A DNA stretch of 57,303 nt, from positions 1 through 57,303 of IMG/VR virus record IMGVR_UViG_3300005965_000006. One strand, written 5' to 3'. Below are positions 29,393-36,660 of this stretch, in pieces. The translations under genes were made by a program, and so were the position numbers. Position 1 is the stretch's first letter; each line of letters begins with the position of its first letter. The DNA comes from a virus. Under the pieces are notes generated by a model. The model was not told the DNA's origin, searched no databases, and was given only the letters and a program-made list of their open reading frames with translations.

Positions 29393-31027
29393 ATGACACA
29401 AATAGGTTCAAATGACGTAGATAAAATATTGGCTGGAAGTGCGCCTATAGAAAAATCTTTTAATGGGGATAATCTTATATATAGTAGAGATTGGTTACCT
29501 ACTGATTTATTTTATTTACTTGTTTGGTATGATTTTTTAGATACAGATACTGTGTCTGTTGATGGCTCTAATGGTCTTACAGATATACTAGATAAAAGTG
29601 GTAATGATTATCATGGAAGTCAGAATGATGCTGAAAAAAGACCTGTTTATACTGATAATAATAAAGTTGTTTTCAGCGGTAATGAGTATATAGATATGAA
29701 GCCTACTGTGCCAGGACTTGTTAGGGCCACTTCAGTATTTAATTGTTTTACCTTGTGCCAATTTTCTTCTACAGCAGAAAATCAATATATAGCCGCATTC
29801 AGTATAGCAACAGCTACAGCAGTAAGATTTGGTCTAAGTTCTACAAGCGGAGCATTCAGTACAACAGGAAGAAGACAAGATATTGACGCTTTTACAGCGG
29901 TATCAGGAAGTGCTATAGATACAAATCTACATTTATTCCACGGGCAACATGACCATACTGTAGGTACAGCAACTGTATGGAAAGATGGTGTACAAGATGC
30001 CTATGACCCTGCTTTTAATGGTATAGGAACTACATATAACTCAGACTCTGCTTATGTAGGTTTAGGTAGTTTAAATGAAACTAGTTCTGGTTATTTCTAT
30101 AATGGTAATCTCTATGAAGTAGTTATAGCTAATGCTATGACTAAAAAAGAAAGACAAAAATTAGAAGGTTGGTGCGCTCATTATACAAATAATACGTCAT
30201 TATTAAATGTAAATCATCGTTATAAATCAAATAAACCTAAAAAATATGAGCCTTGTATCCTAGATGATTATGATGATATTTTAGTCGCTGCTGGATTAGA
30301 ACGCATGAGGTCTAATTATAATGGATATTGTATTAGAGTACAACGGGCCTCCGATTCTCAAGAACAAGATATAGGTTTTTCTGGTGATGAGATAGATAGA
30401 GTAGCTCTTGAGACCTTCTGCTCTGGCACTAATGGAGTAATTACTCGTATTTACCTACAGAATATGCCTAGCCTCTATTTTACCCCAGATTCAGACCCAC
30501 CTGTTATAGTAGAGAGTGGTATAATGGTAACAGACCCTGATGGTAATCCTGCAGCTAAAATGGTAGATAAAGCAGTTGATATGGAATATACACCTGGTTT
30601 ACCGGGAGATAGCTATAGTGTTTATGTTGATTACACTGTAATAGATTCTACTGATGATGGTAGAGCTTATACACACGGTTGGAACGGTGGAAATAATAAA
30701 GGTTTCTATATAGGTAATGATGGTTCAGGTAACTTCTCTCAATATTGGGGTGGAACTAGTTATTCAGAGGCTGGAGTAATTTCAGACAATACACGATACC
30801 AAATAGCTGTAGTAGTAGATGGAACACCTTCCTTTAAAACATACAATGAAACAACTAAATGGTTTGACGTGTGGTCAGGAGCTAGAGAATTAAATGATGA
30901 TTGGTTAATGATTGGAACACAGTGGGGCGCTGAAGTACCTAATTGTAATATGTATTTCAGAAAACTAGCTATACTCAATCACGCTATTAATGAAACTGAA
31001 CTAAGTCAATTAACTAGTTTTTCTTAA
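29393..31027 (+). CDS. Tail fibre with LamG/concanavalin-like domains (544 aa)
   Basis: Two jelly-roll-like modules: residues about 40-255 (VWYDFLDTDTV, then DILDKSGNDYHGSQ, then LYEVVIANAMTKKERQKLEG) and about 375-544 (YSVYVDYTVID, YFRKLAILNHAINETELSQ). Such modules bind sugars. A short linker with YDDILVAAGLERMR joins them. It would act as a receptor-binding fibre next to the glycosidase spike. Its 3' end overlaps the 3' end of the opposing helicase gene by 14 bases. Confidence 0.75.
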   Translation: MTQIGSNDVDKILAGSAPIEKSFNGDNLIYSRDWLPTDLFYLLVWYDFLDTDTVSVDGSNGLTDILDKSGNDYHGSQNDAEKRPVYTDNNKVVFSGNEYIDMKPTVPGLVRATSVFNCFTLCQFSSTAENQYIAAFSIATATAVRFGLSSTSGAFSTTGRRQDIDAFTAVSGSAIDTNLHLFHGQHDHTVGTATVWKDGVQDAYDPAFNGIGTTYNSDSAYVGLGSLNETSSGYFYNGNLYEVVIANAMTKKERQKLEGWCAHYTNNTSLLNVNHRYKSNKPKKYEPCILDDYDDILVAAGLERMRSNYNGYCIRVQRASDSQEQDIGFSGDEIDRVALETFCSGTNGVITRIYLQNMPSLYFTPDSDPPVIVESGIMVTDPDGNPAAKMVDKAVDMEYTPGLPGDSYSVYVDYTVIDSTDDGRAYTHGWNGGNNKGFYIGNDGSGNFSQYWGGTSYSEAGVISDNTRYQIAVVVDGTPSFKTYNETTKWFDVWSGARELNDDWLMIGTQWGAEVPNCNMYFRKLAILNHAINETELSQLTSFS

Positions 31028-32588
31028 GCCAATCTAATATATGGTCTTTAAGTACCTTAGCGGATATATGATACTTATTTACAAGTGCTTCAACAATCTT
31101 TTCTTCAATAGTTCCTTTAGTAATTAAATCAATATATGTAACTTTATTCTTTTGTCCTATACGATAGTTCCGAGTTTCTGACTGTTGCCGCTTTTCTAAA
31201 TCGTAGTCTGAGTCGTAATATATGACATAACTAGCTGCATTAAGTGTTAAGCCCATTCCACCTACTGCCGGGTTAGCTATAAAGAACCTACACTCTGGGT
31301 CATTTTCAAACTTTTCTAATGGAGTCTCCCGGTCCTTCGTACCACCGTAGTATGTAACATAAGAGTCAGGACCATAAATCTTCTCAATCATTTCAGCAAT
31401 CTTAAGTATTCCCTTTTCAACAAAGTGAGACCAGATAATAACCTTCCCATTAATTTCCTCGAGAGTTTCCTCAAGTTCCTTCATCTTATTACACTTAATA
31501 TCTATAAACTTTCCACTATCTGTCTTAAGGAACCCATCACATATCTGTCTGAATCTAAGAAGTTGTGTCAACACAATAGTCACTGATACTTCATCATCTT
31601 CTAATACTATAAGAGCTTCCTTCTTAAGTTGCTCGTAATACTTCTTCTGCTCGGGGGTTAACTCAACCTGACGTGTAAGGTATTGTTTATCTGGAAGGTC
31701 CAAGCACTGTTCTTTAATAAGACGTATAGAAAATGTTTGAAGTTTAGCTGAGAGCTCTTCCTCATTTTGATAATCAACAATTTTCTTATATGATTGCCCA
31801 CCAAATGTAGTACAATCCTCTAGGATAGCATAGCGATTACGGAAAGCATAGAAATTACCGAAGCCTAAAAGGTCCTTAGATAAAAAGGCGCATTGAGCAT
31901 ATACATCAAGTGGAGCCTTAGTTATAGGTGACCCAGTAAGTATCCTACGAAACTTAGCTAGCTTTCCTACATCATATGCAGCAATCGACCTAATAGCCTT
32001 AGGGTTCTTTATCTTTGTAGACTCATCAATTACCATCAAACTGTTATGAACTTTAAGGAAGTTCTTCGCTAGCCGGTTCCCTTTACCCGAGGATGATTTA
32101 CCCTCAGGCATAAGAGCATCAATATTCATTACAAGAATATCTAAAAACGGCTCCGACTTCTTGGACAACATTTTCTTGTACTCTTCCATCTTAGTATTAG
32201 TAGGCCTACTTCCAGTCCACTTTGTTATCTTATAAGGTATATTATCTGGAATATGTTTTGGTATTTCTTTGTTAACCCAGTTTCCGTAAACACCTTTTGG
32301 AGCTATAATTAATAAACCTGTTATCTGATTATTAAGAAAAAGAAGCCCAGCAGTATCAAGAGTGACTTTTGATTTGCCGAGACCCATATCTAAGAACAGA
32401 GCAGCAGTTGTATAATCCCAAGTAGCGTATAGGGAAGCACGTTGATAATCATATGGTTTATATGTATATTGGTACATATCTGGAGTATGAAAACGGGTCC
32501 AAGAAGTATCTTTGTCGATTTCAAGAGTGAGTACTTCTACTCGCTCTTTCAGTGCATCAAAATAAGTATATGGATTAACAGACATCAT
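31014..32588 (-). CDS. SNF2-family (SF2) DNA helicase/translocase (524 aa)
   Basis: Motifs in order: DMGLGKSK (Walker A), VIDESTKI (Walker B, DExx type), RILTGSPI (motif III), IIWSHFVEKG (motif IV), GGMGLTLNAASYVIYYD (motif V) and RNYRIGQKNKVTYIDLIT (motif VI). This is an ATP-driven dsDNA translocase, perhaps clearing proteins or assisting recombination. It is on the strand opposite to both neighbours and starts from the divergent region at 32.8 kb with the small gene 32575-32784. The start overlaps that gene's end. Confidence 0.92.
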   Translation of the reverse strand: MMSVNPYTYFDALKERVEVLTLEIDKDTSWTRFHTPDMYQYTYKPYDYQRASLYATWDYTTAALFLDMGLGKSKVTLDTAGLLFLNNQITGLLIIAPKGVYGNWVNKEIPKHIPDNIPYKITKWTGSRPTNTKMEEYKKMLSKKSEPFLDILVMNIDALMPEGKSSSGKGNRLAKNFLKVHNSLMVIDESTKIKNPKAIRSIAAYDVGKLAKFRRILTGSPITKAPLDVYAQCAFLSKDLLGFGNFYAFRNRYAILEDCTTFGGQSYKKIVDYQNEEELSAKLQTFSIRLIKEQCLDLPDKQYLTRQVELTPEQKKYYEQLKKEALIVLEDDEVSVTIVLTQLLRFRQICDGFLKTDSGKFIDIKCNKMKELEETLEEINGKVIIWSHFVEKGILKIAEMIEKIYGPDSYVTYYGGTKDRETPLEKFENDPECRFFIANPAVGGMGLTLNAASYVIYYDSDYDLEKRQQSETRNYRIGQKNKVTYIDLITKGTIEEKIVEALVNKYHISAKVLKDHILDWLKKN

Positions 32589-32784
32589 AAACTTCCTCCG
32601 CTCTACCTTTAGTAATATAATAAAGAATCATACACTCTCTATAAACTACTGTTGTTGAGGTATAGCAAGGAACTATTTTTACAATCTTTGCCCCTTTTTC
32701 ATGTAATTCTTTTAAAGCTTTATTAATATCTTCCTGAAATTTTTGGTATGTATCAGTACTACTACATACAATTTTTACCTGCAT
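32575..32784 (-). CDS. Small protein upstream of SNF2 helicase (69 aa)
   Basis: Starts after AGGAGTTTGAATT. The pattern MQVKIVCSSTDTYQKFQEDI, IVKIVP, and ECMILYYI resembles short Cse60-like proteins that recur in phages, an assignment made by eye only. It overlaps the helicase start by 14 bases and so is co-translated with it. Confidence 0.6.
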   Translation of the reverse strand: MQVKIVCSSTDTYQKFQEDINKALKELHEKGAKIVKIVPCYTSTTVVYRECMILYYITKGRAEEVYDVC

Positions 32785-33308
32785 AATTCAAACTCCTAAT
32801 TTAATCTAACATTTATATAATATCGCGGAATCGACTGCTTGAGAATATGTTTCTAAATTATTTCTATAGTTGTAAATATACGTAGTGCTTTTTCAAAAAC
32901 AGAATAAAGAATATATAATATATAATATATAATATAAAAGCCTATAGCACGATGCAAAAATATTTTTTATTGACAGTCGATAAAAATCGAAAAATCGCTA
33001 TGTGCCGTATGTGCCGACGGCTCGAAAGTATTATTATAACTGCAATTGAGAAGCACTACCTCAATAACATTGAACTATGTGCTCTAATAGTGCCGTATGT
33101 GCTGGCGATAAAATTCTCGCGCGGTAATATATTCTAAACTACTTCTTCTTGCACATATACGCATATAATAGAAATTCAATTTCAATTCAAGCCATTCGTT
33201 CGATATATCTCTTGGCTTAGTTAGTGTTTACCGGTCAGCCGACGCTACATATTCTCTAGCCGATTGTTTTATGTTATACTATAATTACAAGTTAAACAGG
33301 AGATTATT
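32785..33308. promoter_or_regulatory. Divergent promoter / origin-like region
   Basis: A 524-base gap between the leftward SNF2 unit and the rightward replication genes. It holds an alternating AT block (ATATAATATATAATATAT near 32912-32934), two GTGCCGTATGTGC words (33001 and 33090), further TATGTGC half-sites (33077, and GCACATA at 33150), CTCGCGCG (33117) and AAAAATATT. Rightward TATACT/TATAAT boxes lie at 33275-33285, and a leftward TATTATATAA box near 32815. Several of these words also occur at 2.1-2.3 kb. Confidence 0.6.
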
Positions 33309-33950
33309 ATGACGGACCAATTTAATAAGTTTCTCGATAAAATGGAAGGTATCGATGGAGCTTTAGACGCAGCAGCCCCAAAGGCAGAAAACTTAGCTGA
33401 AATGAATGATTTAGTCCAAGATAAGTTGGACCTTGAAAAAGAGATTGCTGAAATGGAAGCAGAACTCAATAGTAAGAAAAAGGATTTAACAGACCTCGAT
33501 AGAGAAAAAATTCCTAACAAAATGATAGAGCTTGGCTTGAGTAAACTGGTAACAAAATCTGGCGCAGAGTTGTCTATAAATAAAGTTTATAGAGGAAACA
33601 TTTCAGAGAAGTATGCTGAGCATGCCTTAGATTGGTTTATAGAAACTAATCAAGCAGACAGTATAAAAAACGCTTATACTGTAACTCTAGGAGTAGGTAA
33701 GTCTGAGGAAGCTAGAAAGTTAGAACAGGCTCTAATAAATGAAGGTTTCGACTTTAAGAATAAGAAAGATATTGCTTGGAATACACTTGCTAGTATTATA
33801 AAGGATTTAGACCAATCAGAAGAGCTTTCAGATAATGAGGCTTGGAATAAATTACAAGAACAAGGTAAAGTGCCAAAAGGTCTTACTCTTAAAGATGCTT
33901 TAGGTGTCTATGATTATTATGAAACAAAGGTTAAGTTTAAGAAAAAATAG
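33309..33950 (+). CDS. Conserved early phage protein with coiled coil (213 aa)
   Basis: First gene of the replication unit, after AACAGGAGATT. Residues 28-65 are a coiled coil (EKEIAEMEAELNSKKKDL). It continues with IPNKMIELGLSKLVTKSGAE and a DWFIETNQADSIK segment, a combination seen in uncharacterised phage proteins located next to replication genes. A role in ssDNA handling or recombination is possible but unproven. Confidence 0.6.
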   Translation: MTDQFNKFLDKMEGIDGALDAAAPKAENLAEMNDLVQDKLDLEKEIAEMEAELNSKKKDLTDLDREKIPNKMIELGLSKLVTKSGAELSINKVYRGNISEKYAEHALDWFIETNQADSIKNAYTVTLGVGKSEEARKLEQALINEGFDFKNKKDIAWNTLASIIKDLDQSEELSDNEAWNKLQEQGKVPKGLTLKDALGVYDYYETKVKFKKK

Positions 33951-33997
33951 GGCTAATTGTCAATTAGTCCTGGTATACTAAAGAAAAGGAGATTAAC

Positions 33998-34876
33998 ATG
34001 ACAAAAAAAGAACAGACCGAAGAAAAGAAAAACGAGGTAGTAACAACTAAATCAACAAGTTTATCTGCAGGCTTTAGTCAGTATGCAGGTGCTGGGGCTG
34101 AAAATATCACAAGAGACGATATTAAAATGCCTCATCTCAAAATTATCGAAGGTGGTTCTGATTATGTAAAGCAAGGCTCAGATGATTATATCGACGAAGC
34201 TAAGGTTGGTGATATAATCAATACAGCCACAAAAGAACTTTACACTAATAAAACAGATGGAGTTCTTATTATCCCTGTTATCAATAAGAAACTTTTTACT
34301 GAGTGGGCTCCACGTGGTTCAGAAGAGAGTACTGGTAGACCAGTAGCTTATCATGAATTACCACCAGCGGATGCTAAAGAAGTAGAAGTTTCTACTGAGA
34401 TTGGTACTAAAAAAGTACTTAAAAGAGAAAATGGTAATGAGATAGTAGAAACTCAATACTACTTTGTAATTATTTTAGATAAAGATAATAATCCTATACC
34501 TGGTATTATTGATATGTCAAGTACCCGTTTATCTAGCGCAAGGGAACTTAATACTTGCATATATAATTATACTCAAAAAGGTCTTCCAGCTTTTGCTGCA
34601 ATAATCAAACTAAAAACAGTATTTAAACAAAAGGGTGGAAAATCTTGGAATATTTACACTGTCAGTAAAGTTAAAGAACATGCTCTTTTAAAAGATGGCT
34701 TTTTAGATATTGAAGGTAGTGCAAAAGAATTATTTGAATATACCGCTAACCAATATAATATAGCTTTAAAAGATAAAAACTTCTTTATCAATGTTGCTAC
34801 AACTGATTCAGATAACCAAGGCGAAGGTAAAAAAGGTTCAGATACTAAATCTGAAGCTGTAAAAGGGATACTTTGA
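33998..34876 (+). CDS. Conserved phage protein, possibly ssDNA-binding (292 aa)
   Basis: Starts after AAAGGAG. Contains ITRDDIKMPHLKIIEGGSDY, VGDIINTATKELY and VLIIPVINKKLFTEWAPRG, a layout shared by widespread phage proteins in replication/recombination clusters. The beta-rich core fits an OB-like fold, and the last 30 residues are polar/acidic, as in ssDNA-binding proteins. No experimental family name is recalled. Confidence 0.6.
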   Translation: MTKKEQTEEKKNEVVTTKSTSLSAGFSQYAGAGAENITRDDIKMPHLKIIEGGSDYVKQGSDDYIDEAKVGDIINTATKELYTNKTDGVLIIPVINKKLFTEWAPRGSEESTGRPVAYHELPPADAKEVEVSTEIGTKKVLKRENGNEIVETQYYFVIILDKDNNPIPGIIDMSSTRLSSARELNTCIYNYTQKGLPAFAAIIKLKTVFKQKGGKSWNIYTVSKVKEHALLKDGFLDIEGSAKELFEYTANQYNIALKDKNFFINVATTDSDNQGEGKKGSDTKSEAVKGIL

Positions 34877-34917
34877 GAATATAGGCCCGTATTCCCTGGT
34901 GGTTAAGACCTATATTC
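34877..34917 (+). repeat. Hairpin directly after a stop codon
   Basis: GAATATAGG (34877-34885) pairs exactly with CCTATATTC (34909-34917) around a 23-base loop. It begins at the first base after the TGA of the preceding gene. No T-run follows, so it is more likely an RNA-protecting or processing hairpin than a terminator. Confidence 0.6.
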
Positions 34918-35071
34918 AATAGTCCGTGGACAAATAAAAGACAGTAATGTCAATGTCGAGGAGAGGCTGAAGACTCCCAAACCGGCAAGCAGGTGGAAAG
35001 CCTGCATTATGGGGTTATTATTTTCCTGGTTTAGTGTTCCCCTGCAAAACCCCAAACCAGGGCCTTTTTTG
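34918..35071 (+). ncRNA. Structured RNA with intrinsic terminator
   Basis: Between two coding genes lie small stems GTCC/GGAC (34922), GAC/GTC (34940), GGAG/CTCC (34960) and GCAGG/CCTGC (34989-35005). The terminator stem is CCTGGTTT (35025-35032) with AAACCAGG (35054-35061), followed by TTTTTT. GGGGTT (35011) can pair with AACCCC inside the terminator loop, giving a pseudoknot or an antiterminator-like switch. It was not matched to a known riboswitch or ribozyme. Either a phage small RNA or an attenuator for the primase gene. Confidence 0.5.
35025..35071 (+). terminator. Terminator ending the structured RNA
   Basis: The eight-base stem CCTGGTTT/AAACCAGG with a 21-base loop is followed by GCC and six T's. 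It lies 24 bases before the primase start, so read-through or antitermination would be needed for downstream expression unless a promoter lies within. Confidence 0.75.
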
Positions 35072-35094
35072 TCAGCGCAGAATTAGGAAGAGCT

Positions 35095-36660
35095 ATGAAT
35101 ATAGAACAGATTGCAAAGGAGCTAATGGAACTCTTTAGCGGGCTGGAAAATGGTCATGGGACATATAATCCACAGGTTACTGATGCCAAGGGTAAGTTAG
35201 TTGGACATGCTGAATTTATTCACGAACCTGCTACACTTACTACCTGGATTAATCATGTTAAAGGTGACCTTGGGGTAGGAATGGGTCCTATAAACAATTC
35301 AAGCCAGTGTCGTTGGGGGGCTATAGATATTGATGACTACAATATTAACCATTCAAAACTTATAAAGAAAATAATAGAATTAAAGTTTCCACTAATCTGT
35401 GTAAAGTCTAAATCAGGTGGCGCTCACTTGATGATGTTTATGACAGATTGGGTTCCAGCAGAGCTTGTTAAAGATAGATTAACTGAGATGGCTGCTGCTT
35501 TAGGGCATGCTTATGGTAAGAATAATAAGCCGACAGAGGTTTTTCCTAGGCAGTCGACTATCCTCTCGGACAGAGGCGATTGTGGTAACTGGTTGAATAT
35601 TCCTTATTTTGGTGGGGATGATTCAAATAGATATGCTCTTGATGAGAATGCTGAAAGATTGTCTACAGAGAAGTTTATAGAGGTCGCTAATAAGAGCAAG
35701 ATAACAGAAGACCAATTAAAAGCATTGGATGTTGCTGCTGTTCAATTAACCAAGTCTGAGTTTGCTGACGCCCCTTTTTGTTTAGGACAAATTTGTGAAG
35801 AAGGAAGTGTTTTAGAAGGTAACAGGAATATTTTTATGTATAATATGGGTGTATTGGCTCAAAAGATACATCCACACAATAGAGAAGAACGAAATGCTCT
35901 TATGGAGCGTTGGAATCAAGAACTATGCGACCCAGCTCTTTCAGCTAAAGAAATATGTGACTTACAATCCTCGCTAGATAAACACCCTGATTATAAGTAT
36001 CAATGTAAAGAATCTTTACTGCGGAGCTATTGTAATAATGCTATTTGTAAAACAAGGAAGCATGGTTTAAGTGGTGCTTGCCACATGCCTGCTCTTGCAG
36101 ACTTAACTAGATTGAATAGTAGTCCAGCAATATTTTTCTTACAGGTGAATAATGTTAGAGTAGAATTTGCTGATGTTAATGAATTAATTCAACAACCTAG
36201 ATTTCAAGCTTGTTGTGTAGAACAGGCAAACGTGATGCCTCCAACACTAAAGAAGTCAGAATGGACAGACCTTATAAATCAATTACTTGAAGATGTTAGA
36301 ATAATAGAGGCTTCACCAGATGCTTCTATAGAGGCTAAGTTAGAAGAGTTACTTGAATCTTTTGCTGAACAAATGTCTGCAGGATTAGACAGACAAGATA
36401 TTACAAGAGGATTACCGTGGTTTGATAAGAAAACACAGAAAACTGTATTTAAACTTCATGCCCTTGAGTCATTCCTTGCAAATAACAAATTTAGACAAAT
36501 GTCCAGGGGCCAATTAATAAATAAATTAAAATCCTGGGGCGGAGAGAGCAAACAAATAAAGATAAACGGTAAGAACCATAATGTATGGCAACTAACTATA
36601 GATAACATAGCTAATAAAGTATTTGATATTGAATTGAAAACGGAGAAAGATATATTGTGA
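35095..36660 (+). CDS. Archaeo-eukaryotic-type (AEP) primase (521 aa)
   Basis: Catalytic signature of AEP primases as in TOTE-type and phage primases: RWGAIDIDDY (metal-binding Asp pair near residue 83), KSKSGGAHLMMF (SxGxH-like motif) and EVFPRQ with GNWLNIPYFGG. A Cys cluster (CKESLLRSYCNNAICKTR) around residues 303-320 may bind zinc. It would make primers, or act as primase-polymerase, at the fork. The C-terminus (about 430-515) is basic and may bind DNA or a helicase. There is no DnaB-type domain. Confidence 0.82.
   Translation: MNIEQIAKELMELFSGLENGHGTYNPQVTDAKGKLVGHAEFIHEPATLTTWINHVKGDLGVGMGPINNSSQCRWGAIDIDDYNINHSKLIKKIIELKFPLICVKSKSGGAHLMMFMTDWVPAELVKDRLTEMAAALGHAYGKNNKPTEVFPRQSTILSDRGDCGNWLNIPYFGGDDSNRYALDENAERLSTEKFIEVANKSKITEDQLKALDVAAVQLTKSEFADAPFCLGQICEEGSVLEGNRNIFMYNMGVLAQKIHPHNREERNALMERWNQELCDPALSAKEICDLQSSLDKHPDYKYQCKESLLRSYCNNAICKTRKHGLSGACHMPALADLTRLNSSPAIFFLQVNNVRVEFADVNELIQQPRFQACCVEQANVMPPTLKKSEWTDLINQLLEDVRIIEASPDASIEAKLEELLESFAEQMSAGLDRQDITRGLPWFDKKTQKTVFKLHALESFLANNKFRQMSRGQLINKLKSWGGESKQIKINGKNHNVWQLTIDNIANKVFDIELKTEKDIL

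What the first reader, a model, noticed from the sequence alone, without database searches (positions are those of the whole stretch)
34877..35094. Unidentified structured RNA between two replication genes
A 218-base gap holds a 9-bp hairpin starting at the first base after a stop codon, several small stems, a near-perfect GCAGG/CCTGC hairpin and an intrinsic terminator with six T's, just before the primase gene. GGGGTT upstream can pair with AACCCC in the terminator loop, forming a pseudoknot or a mutually exclusive fold. This looks like a phage small RNA or an attenuator controlling primase and helicase expression. It did not match riboswitch or ribozyme cores I know (hammerhead, c-di-GMP, THF, glnA).
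Basis: partly seen in the sequence, partly recalled or inferred. Interest (0 to 1): 0.62.

Follow-up and report, generated by a model that had tools for sequence, protein, structure and literature searches.

The report
Undescribed structured RNA widespread in phages
The gap before the primase gene holds a folded RNA whose structure, though not its sequence, is kept in dozens of unrelated bacteriophages, often beside their tRNA genes; it matches no catalogued RNA family, so it appears to be a new class of phage noncoding RNA whose function is not yet known.

Summary
Window 34874-35006 is one member of a phage RNA class that matches none of the 4,227 Rfam families. Motif searches plus a covariance model found it at 57 loci at E<=4e-7: phages of Sinorhizobium, Acinetobacter, Eggerthella, Aeromonas, Vibrio, Klebsiella, huge-phage contigs and, as a variant, Ackermannviridae. 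Almost every record holds one copy. A strict pattern hit only 2 contigs in 84,980 prokaryote species genomes. Compensatory change proves the structure: 122 double-changed cells against 35 shuffled in the seed, 205 against 55 in 23 sequences not used for the model. The 3' hairpin is a tRNA-like T-arm (5 bp, UGGAAAG loop) with covarying tertiary contacts. In tRNA-bearing phages it lies close to tRNA genes (12 of 20 within 700 nt, at most 2.5 expected). The attenuator idea is not supported in general: downstream genes are unrelated, most relatives lack a terminator, and the GGGGTT/AACCCC pairing lies outside the conserved core. Most likely it is a processed, trans-acting RNA linked to tRNA or translation. 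The class is firm; its function is inferred.

The parts
34874..35006 (+). Whole conserved RNA (member of the phage RNA class)
   Evidence: Covariance model R1 hit, 105 bits, E 2e-26 (this sequence is one of the 15 seeds). Seed found by pattern and blastn.
34874..34876 (+). TGA: stop codon of the upstream ORF and at the same time the conserved UGAG at the 5' edge of the RNA
   Evidence: UGA is at this place in nearly all members; also the upstream stop codon in L036, L047, L076 and L088.
34877..34917 (+). P1 hairpin: 34877-34885 pairs with 34909-34917 (9 bp)
   Evidence: All 9 pairs change on both sides across 39 members, 96% paired.
34886..34908 (+). P1 loop with near-invariant signature (consensus CCCGNAUCCC-n5-GGUYAAGA); apical covarying pair 34896-34899
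   Evidence: Conservation; apical pair UA30 CG14 GC10 AU2.
34918..34923 (+). Near-invariant junction AAUAGU between P1 and P2
   Evidence: replaced in the Ackermannviridae variant.
34924..34926 (+). P2 5' strand, pairs with 34983-34985 (3 bp here, 4 in most members)
   Evidence: 4 of 4 pairs change on both sides, 99% paired.
34940..34951 (+). P5 hairpin GACA-GUAA-UGUC with a GNRA tetraloop
   Evidence: 4 of 4 pairs change on both sides; GNRA-type loop in most members.
34960..34977 (+). P4 hairpin GGAG 34960-34963 with CUCC 34974-34977
   Evidence: Helix covaries in relatives; window pairing read from the sequence.
34978..34988 (+). Junction CAAAC, P2 3' strand (34983-34985) and C34986; 34981 and 34986 covary with the P3 loop
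   Evidence: 34981 with 34996: CG39 GC5 UA2; 34986 with 35000: CG51 UA3.
34989..35005 (+). P3: T-arm-like hairpin, 5-bp stem 34989-34993 with 35001-35005, 7-nt loop UGGAAAG
   Evidence: Loop U1 37/38, A4 38/38, A5 38/38, closing G-C; stem covaries.
35025..35070 (+). Terminator-like hairpin 35025-35061 and T-run 35065-35070, outside the conserved core
   Evidence: Sequence; hairpin -9.3 kcal/mol, stem probability 0.36 in context.
35011..35053 (+). GGGGTT 35011-35016 and AACCCC 35048-35053, possible alternative pairing; window-only, untested
   Evidence: 3.7% of shuffles have such a match.
33998..34876 (+). Upstream gene, Pam3 gp34-like (PHROG 2402)
35095..36660 (+). Downstream gene, AEP/TOTE-type primase

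Best explanation
Shown: this is one member of a phage-specific structured RNA class. It has a 9-bp P1 whose loop carries a near-invariant signature, a long-range P2 enclosing a GNRA hairpin (P5) and a second hairpin (P4), and a 3' T-arm-like hairpin (P3) whose loop covaries with nucleotides flanking P2. It lies inside operons or tRNA clusters on their sense strand, almost always once per genome, and its neighbouring genes differ from phage to phage. Inferred: the RNA is transcribed with its neighbours and released by processing, as tRNAs are, with a terminator supplying the 3' end in some phages. It then acts in trans as a compact RNA or RNA-protein particle. The T-arm mimic and the tRNA-gene linkage suggest that it engages tRNA-handling or translation machinery during infection, for example as a decoy or scaffold for a tRNA-elbow-binding factor. 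My estimates: class real, above 0.97; acts in trans, about 0.6; target related to tRNA or translation given trans action, about 0.4.
For: Covariation: seed, from an alignment not fitted to the structure, 122 double-changed cells against 35 shuffled; 39 members, 366 against 101; 23 non-seed members, 205 against 55. 57 loci at E<=4e-7. One copy in 26 of 26 records and in most, up to 447 kb. Two hits in 84,980 species genomes, one on a phage-like contig. T-loop consensus and tertiary covariation. tRNA proximity: 12 of 20 tRNA-bearing records within 700 nt, at most 2.5 expected, P 8e-8; 6 within 100 nt against 0.64. Downstream genes show no homology among 25, upstream genes little among 26. Terminators 1-6 nt behind the RNA in six loci.
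Against: No transcript was seen; expression and processing are unproven. The window phage and three other carriers have no detected tRNA gene, so a tRNA role cannot be obligatory. The RNA often lies 16-40 nt before an ORF, which a cis element would also show. T-loops occur in many RNAs unrelated to tRNA function.
Confidence: 0.58

Rival explanations
1. A cis-acting element of the nascent transcript, for example a put-like antitermination element or an insulator against Rho or RNases that helps polymerase or mRNA pass through long operons and untranslated tRNA arrays.
For: It always sits inside transcription units, often before tRNA arrays; in the window a terminator-like hairpin follows with no room for a promoter before primase; the neighbours do not matter, as expected of a general element.
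Against: Almost always a single copy, also in genomes of 150-450 kb with many operons. It is not confined to operon starts: in the window it follows two genes. In a group of related phages it ends right at a terminator.
Confidence: 0.24
2. An attenuator or riboswitch leader that controls the primase and helicase operon through the GGGGTT/AACCCC switch and the terminator.
For: Terminator-like hairpin and alternative pairing of nearly equal energy (-13.0 with the stem enforced against -13.7), 24 nt before primase.
Against: The same RNA precedes unrelated genes elsewhere and most members have no terminator. The switch sequences lie outside the conserved core and a match as good arises in 3.7% of shuffles. 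Primase relatives in other phages have only 24-52 nt before them and their genomes have no match to the model.
Confidence: 0.08
3. A self-cleaving or self-splicing ribozyme, or the remnant of one.
For: A compact fold with strongly conserved loops and tertiary contacts, in mobile phage contexts.
Against: No Rfam ribozyme or intron family at E<=10 in the window or E<=5 in relatives. Positions are intergenic, with no split gene noticed.
Confidence: 0.04
4. A homo-oligomeric scaffold RNA (as pRNA, GOLLD or ROOL are), with the self-complementary P1 apex as kissing loop.
For: The four-base apex X-NN-X' pairs first with fourth base in nearly all members, and in most of 65 members the whole tetranucleotide is self-complementary when G-U is allowed (TGTA, GGTC, GATC, TATA, CATG, CGTG).
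Against: TTTA, CTTG, GAAC and TCAA occur, which are not fully self-complementary; a CUUG-like hairpin with a two-base loop explains the first-fourth pair without any dimer.
Confidence: 0.06

Closest known systems
Phage T4 stable RNAs C and D (rnaC, rnaD)
   Same: Small phage RNAs of unknown function next to a tRNA cluster (annotated at NC_000866 70908-71171).
   Different: Neither matches the model; no hit in the whole T4 genome, and the P1 signature and CAAUAGUC are absent.
GOLLD and ROOL ornate RNAs
   Same: Structured noncoding RNAs, some of them phage-borne; a library search ties them to phage and tRNA (PMC12286853).
   Different: They are several hundred nucleotides long; no Rfam match of this RNA to either. 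Length here is 130-310 nt and the helix plan differs.
T-loop modules (tRNA T-arm, cobalamin riboswitch loops, RNase P)
   Same: P3 has 5 bp and a 7-nt U-N-N-A-A-N-N loop closed by G-C, with loop bases covarying with a distant strand. The resemblance to the cobalamin riboswitch GGUGCAAAUCC hairpin is from memory.
   Different: A motif, not homology: no tRNA, tmRNA or cobalamin match in the window.
put antitermination RNA of phage HK022
   Same: A phage RNA element inside transcription units, possibly upstream of terminators.
   Different: put is shorter, promoter-proximal and present in two early operons (from memory); not compared by sequence here.
phi29 packaging RNA (pRNA)
   Same: A phage RNA with a possible four-base loop contact.
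   Different: Present in Rfam, no match; not tied to packaging genes here.

Membership tests
Any family of Rfam 15 | Score above a curated threshold, or at least E<=10, over the RNA | tested here: not met
   Searches (window; eight relatives, E<=5): no hit overlaps the RNA.
Phage RNA class defined here | P1, P2, P3, P4 and P5 with covariation, P1-loop signature, T-loop P3 | tested here: met
T4 RNA C/D | Match of T4 rnaC or rnaD to the model | tested here: not met
   record W01: no match.
Transcription attenuator of primase | Mutually exclusive terminator and antiterminator, conserved with the regulated gene | tested here: not met
   Core found before unrelated genes; switch outside the core; terminator absent in most relatives.
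Riboswitch | Association with genes of one pathway | tested here: not met
   25 downstream proteins without a homologous pair.
Riboswitch | Ligand binding | not testable with these tools
   Needs in-line probing.
T-loop motif | 7-nt loop, U at position 1, purine-A at positions 4-5, closing G-C | tested here: met
tRNA / tmRNA | ARAGORN or Rfam tRNA/tmRNA match | tested here: not met
   none in the window.
put-like antitermination element | Polymerase read-through of downstream terminators | not testable with these tools
   Needs a reporter assay.
Self-cleaving ribozyme | Catalysis | not testable with these tools
   Only the absence of Rfam ribozyme matches was tested.

The most novel reading that the evidence does not exclude
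A previously undescribed, phage-specific RNA class that uses a tRNA-like T-arm and a conserved P1 loop to bind tRNA-elbow-recognising machinery (host RNase P, ribosome or tRNA-targeting defence nucleases) in trans, carried once per genome by phages of very different hosts and sizes.
Probability: 0.22. Interest if true: 0.88.

Novelty: categorically new. Interest (0 to 1): 0.74.

Why it matters
An RNA shape kept by strong selection in phages of Proteobacteria, Actinobacteria and unknown hosts, in records from about 40 kb to 448 kb, points to a common task in infection that nobody has catalogued. Members or close variants sit, unannotated or overlaid by 'hypothetical protein' ORFs, in cultivable phages (Ackermannviridae, Sinorhizobium phiM12), so the function can be tested at once. 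The T-arm-like hairpin beside phage tRNA genes may help with the old question of what the extra stable RNAs in phage tRNA clusters do.

Tried and rejected
(1) Relatives by neighbouring proteins in viral contigs: none found, so I switched to the RNA motif. (2) tRNA, tmRNA, introns, ribozymes and all other Rfam families: no match. (3) T4 RNA C/D homology: no model match. (4) A GAC/GUC pseudoknot between the P1 loop and the CAAUAGUC junction: no covariation, both sides being nearly invariant. (5) Riboswitch by pathway linkage: rejected. (6) Dhillonvirus portal-gene blast hits: a short match inside a coding gene, taken as chance. (7) Pattern hits without the 3' half (L016, L019, L022, L025, L029-L032, L037, L038, L052, L054) are chance matches, mostly in coding DNA, and were left out. 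(9) Ten paper searches found no description of this RNA; subscription papers and preprints were not searchable. (10) Local folding energy is uninformative.

Full report
Observation. Energy alone would not have justified attention: z = -0.52 for the gap and -1.85 for the core. Rfam 15 gives nothing in the window at gathering thresholds, or at E<=10 around the gap.

Relatives. A blastn of the gap against 50,697 phage genomes gave one telling 29-nt match, at the start of the Ochrobactrum phage ZX86 record, under an ORF called hypothetical. Used as a degenerate pattern, that stretch hit seven unrelated viral contigs. Reading their flanks showed a second shared element upstream, GGUUAAGAC-7 nt-CAAUAGUC. 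Patterns for each element found dozens more contigs. Most contigs found only by the 5' element also carry the 3' element, and the reverse.

Structure. From 15 compact members I wrote a five-helix structure and built covariance model R1. In the seed, 122 cells change on both sides with pairing kept, against 35 in shuffles; the covariation score falls from 0.83 to 0.06-0.16 when the partners are slid by 1-3 columns. In 39 members 25 of 26 pairs vary on both sides and 96.7% of cells pair. In the 23 sequences fetched later by the 5' pattern, none used in the model, 97.5% of cells pair, with 205 double changes against 55. The last two alignments were fitted to the structure, so the seed result, from an ordinary MAFFT alignment, is the cleaner test; it points the same way. 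Fifty-seven loci match at E<=4e-7. Long-insert members extend one internal region, to about 310 nt in all.

Tertiary features. Mutual information on 57 members recovers the helices and three further pairs: 34896-34899 in the P1 apex (UA30, CG14, GC10, AU2), 34981 with the third nucleotide of the P3 loop (CG39, GC5, UA2), and 34986 with its seventh (CG51, UA3). The P3 loop UGGAAAG is seven nucleotides closed by G-C, with U1, A4 and A5 essentially invariant. This is the T-loop consensus known from tRNA T-arms (general knowledge). That it docks locally is supported by the covariation; that it mimics a tRNA elbow for a protein is inference.

Distribution. Named carriers are Sinorhizobium phages phiM12, phiM7, phiM19 and phiN3, Acinetobacter fJoAci04, Eggerthella LE2-3, Vibrio YC, Aeromonas phiA8-29 and TSW001 and Klebsiella KP13-26; model scores are. 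Ackermannviridae such as AG3, LIMEstone1, phiMAM1 and 0507-KN2-1 carry a variant that keeps the P1 hairpin and loop, lacks CAAUAGUC and adds an outer stem of the type CCAACC/GGUUGG that by eye also varies compensatorily. Well over a hundred further phage records match the 25-nt P1 loop; that match alone is weaker evidence. Almost every record has one copy; the few with two or three rows are mostly split matches of long-insert members. In 84,980 bacterial and archaeal species genomes a strict pattern hit two contigs; I read the ORFs of one as those of a T4-like phage, and the other is an 8-kb fragment.

Context. In 20 tRNA-bearing records the RNA lies within 700 nt of a tRNA gene in 12, against at most 2.5 expected; 6 lie within 100 nt against 0.64 (the tRNA list printed was cut, which can only hide nearer tRNAs). 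The nearby tRNAs are on the same strand. The window phage has no tRNA. The RNA often begins on or just after an upstream stop codon: its conserved UGA is the stop codon itself in the window, L036, L047, L076 and L088. In many loci an ORF follows 16-40 nt later. Twenty-five downstream proteins share no homologous pair, and among 26 upstream ones there are four small groups. Identified neighbours include DNA polymerase, terminase, ThyX, dUTPase, SSB and helicase loader. Primase relatives in DSL-LC04, ct3Et533 and 023Pt_psg01 have only 24-52 nt before them, and no match in their genomes. The RNA is therefore not a fixture of the primase gene.

Interpretation. One copy per genome, changing neighbours and strong tertiary conservation argue for a trans-acting RNA released from longer transcripts. 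tRNA-gene linkage and the T-arm argue, with moderate weight, for a target related to tRNA or translation. A cis-acting antitermination or insulating role is the main rival. The terminator hairpin is moderate (-9.3 kcal/mol; stem probability 0.36 in context). Six other loci have a comparable hairpin 1-6 nt after the RNA, and about 50 do not (my own simple scan).

Novelty. No Rfam family, and no paper found in the searchable open-access library, describes it. The closest biological analogues, T4 RNAs C and D, do not match the model. I file it as a new RNA class, with the caveat that subscription papers and preprints could not be searched and that no expression data were available.

Noticed in passing
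L002 60-760 and L097 (Ochrobactrum phage ZX86, PV394112, across the record start): The RNA spans the start of the circular record: CAAUAGUCUGUGG at the end, the P3 half at the beginning, with an altered P1 loop; the 3' half is annotated as a hypothetical protein. A further 700 nt beside it hold a tRNA and look noncoding and structured.
   Followed up: partly
L091, L092, L096, L066 around 1440-1700: Ackermannviridae variant: conserved P1 loop, no CAAUAGUC, outer stem of the type CCAACC/GGUUGG, upstream of tRNA genes; probably deserves its own covariance model.
   Followed up: partly
L042, L076, L086, L088, 1-4 nt after the RNA: A near-identical terminator-like hairpin (GAAGACC-4 nt-GGUC-T7 or longer) follows the RNA in a group of phage contigs of about 150-190 kb, giving a clean 3' end for a separate transcript.
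   Followed up: partly
L021 6629-6764 (minus strand): A weak second match (15.7 bits) beside the main copy, perhaps a decayed duplicate.
   Followed up: no
L078 8025-8381 (minus strand): A tmRNA gene (tag ANDNALPMAA) and many tRNAs in a 358-kb phage contig that also carries this RNA.
   Followed up: no
window 31014-36660: Replication module with SNF2 helicase (minus strand), Pam3 gp33-like and gp34-like genes and an AEP/TOTE-type primase; the same gene order occurs in phage DSL-LC04, without the RNA.
   Followed up: no
L069 570-749 (8-kb contig of a Flavobacteriaceae MAG): One of two copies found in prokaryote assemblies; whether this contig is phage was not tested.
   Followed up: no
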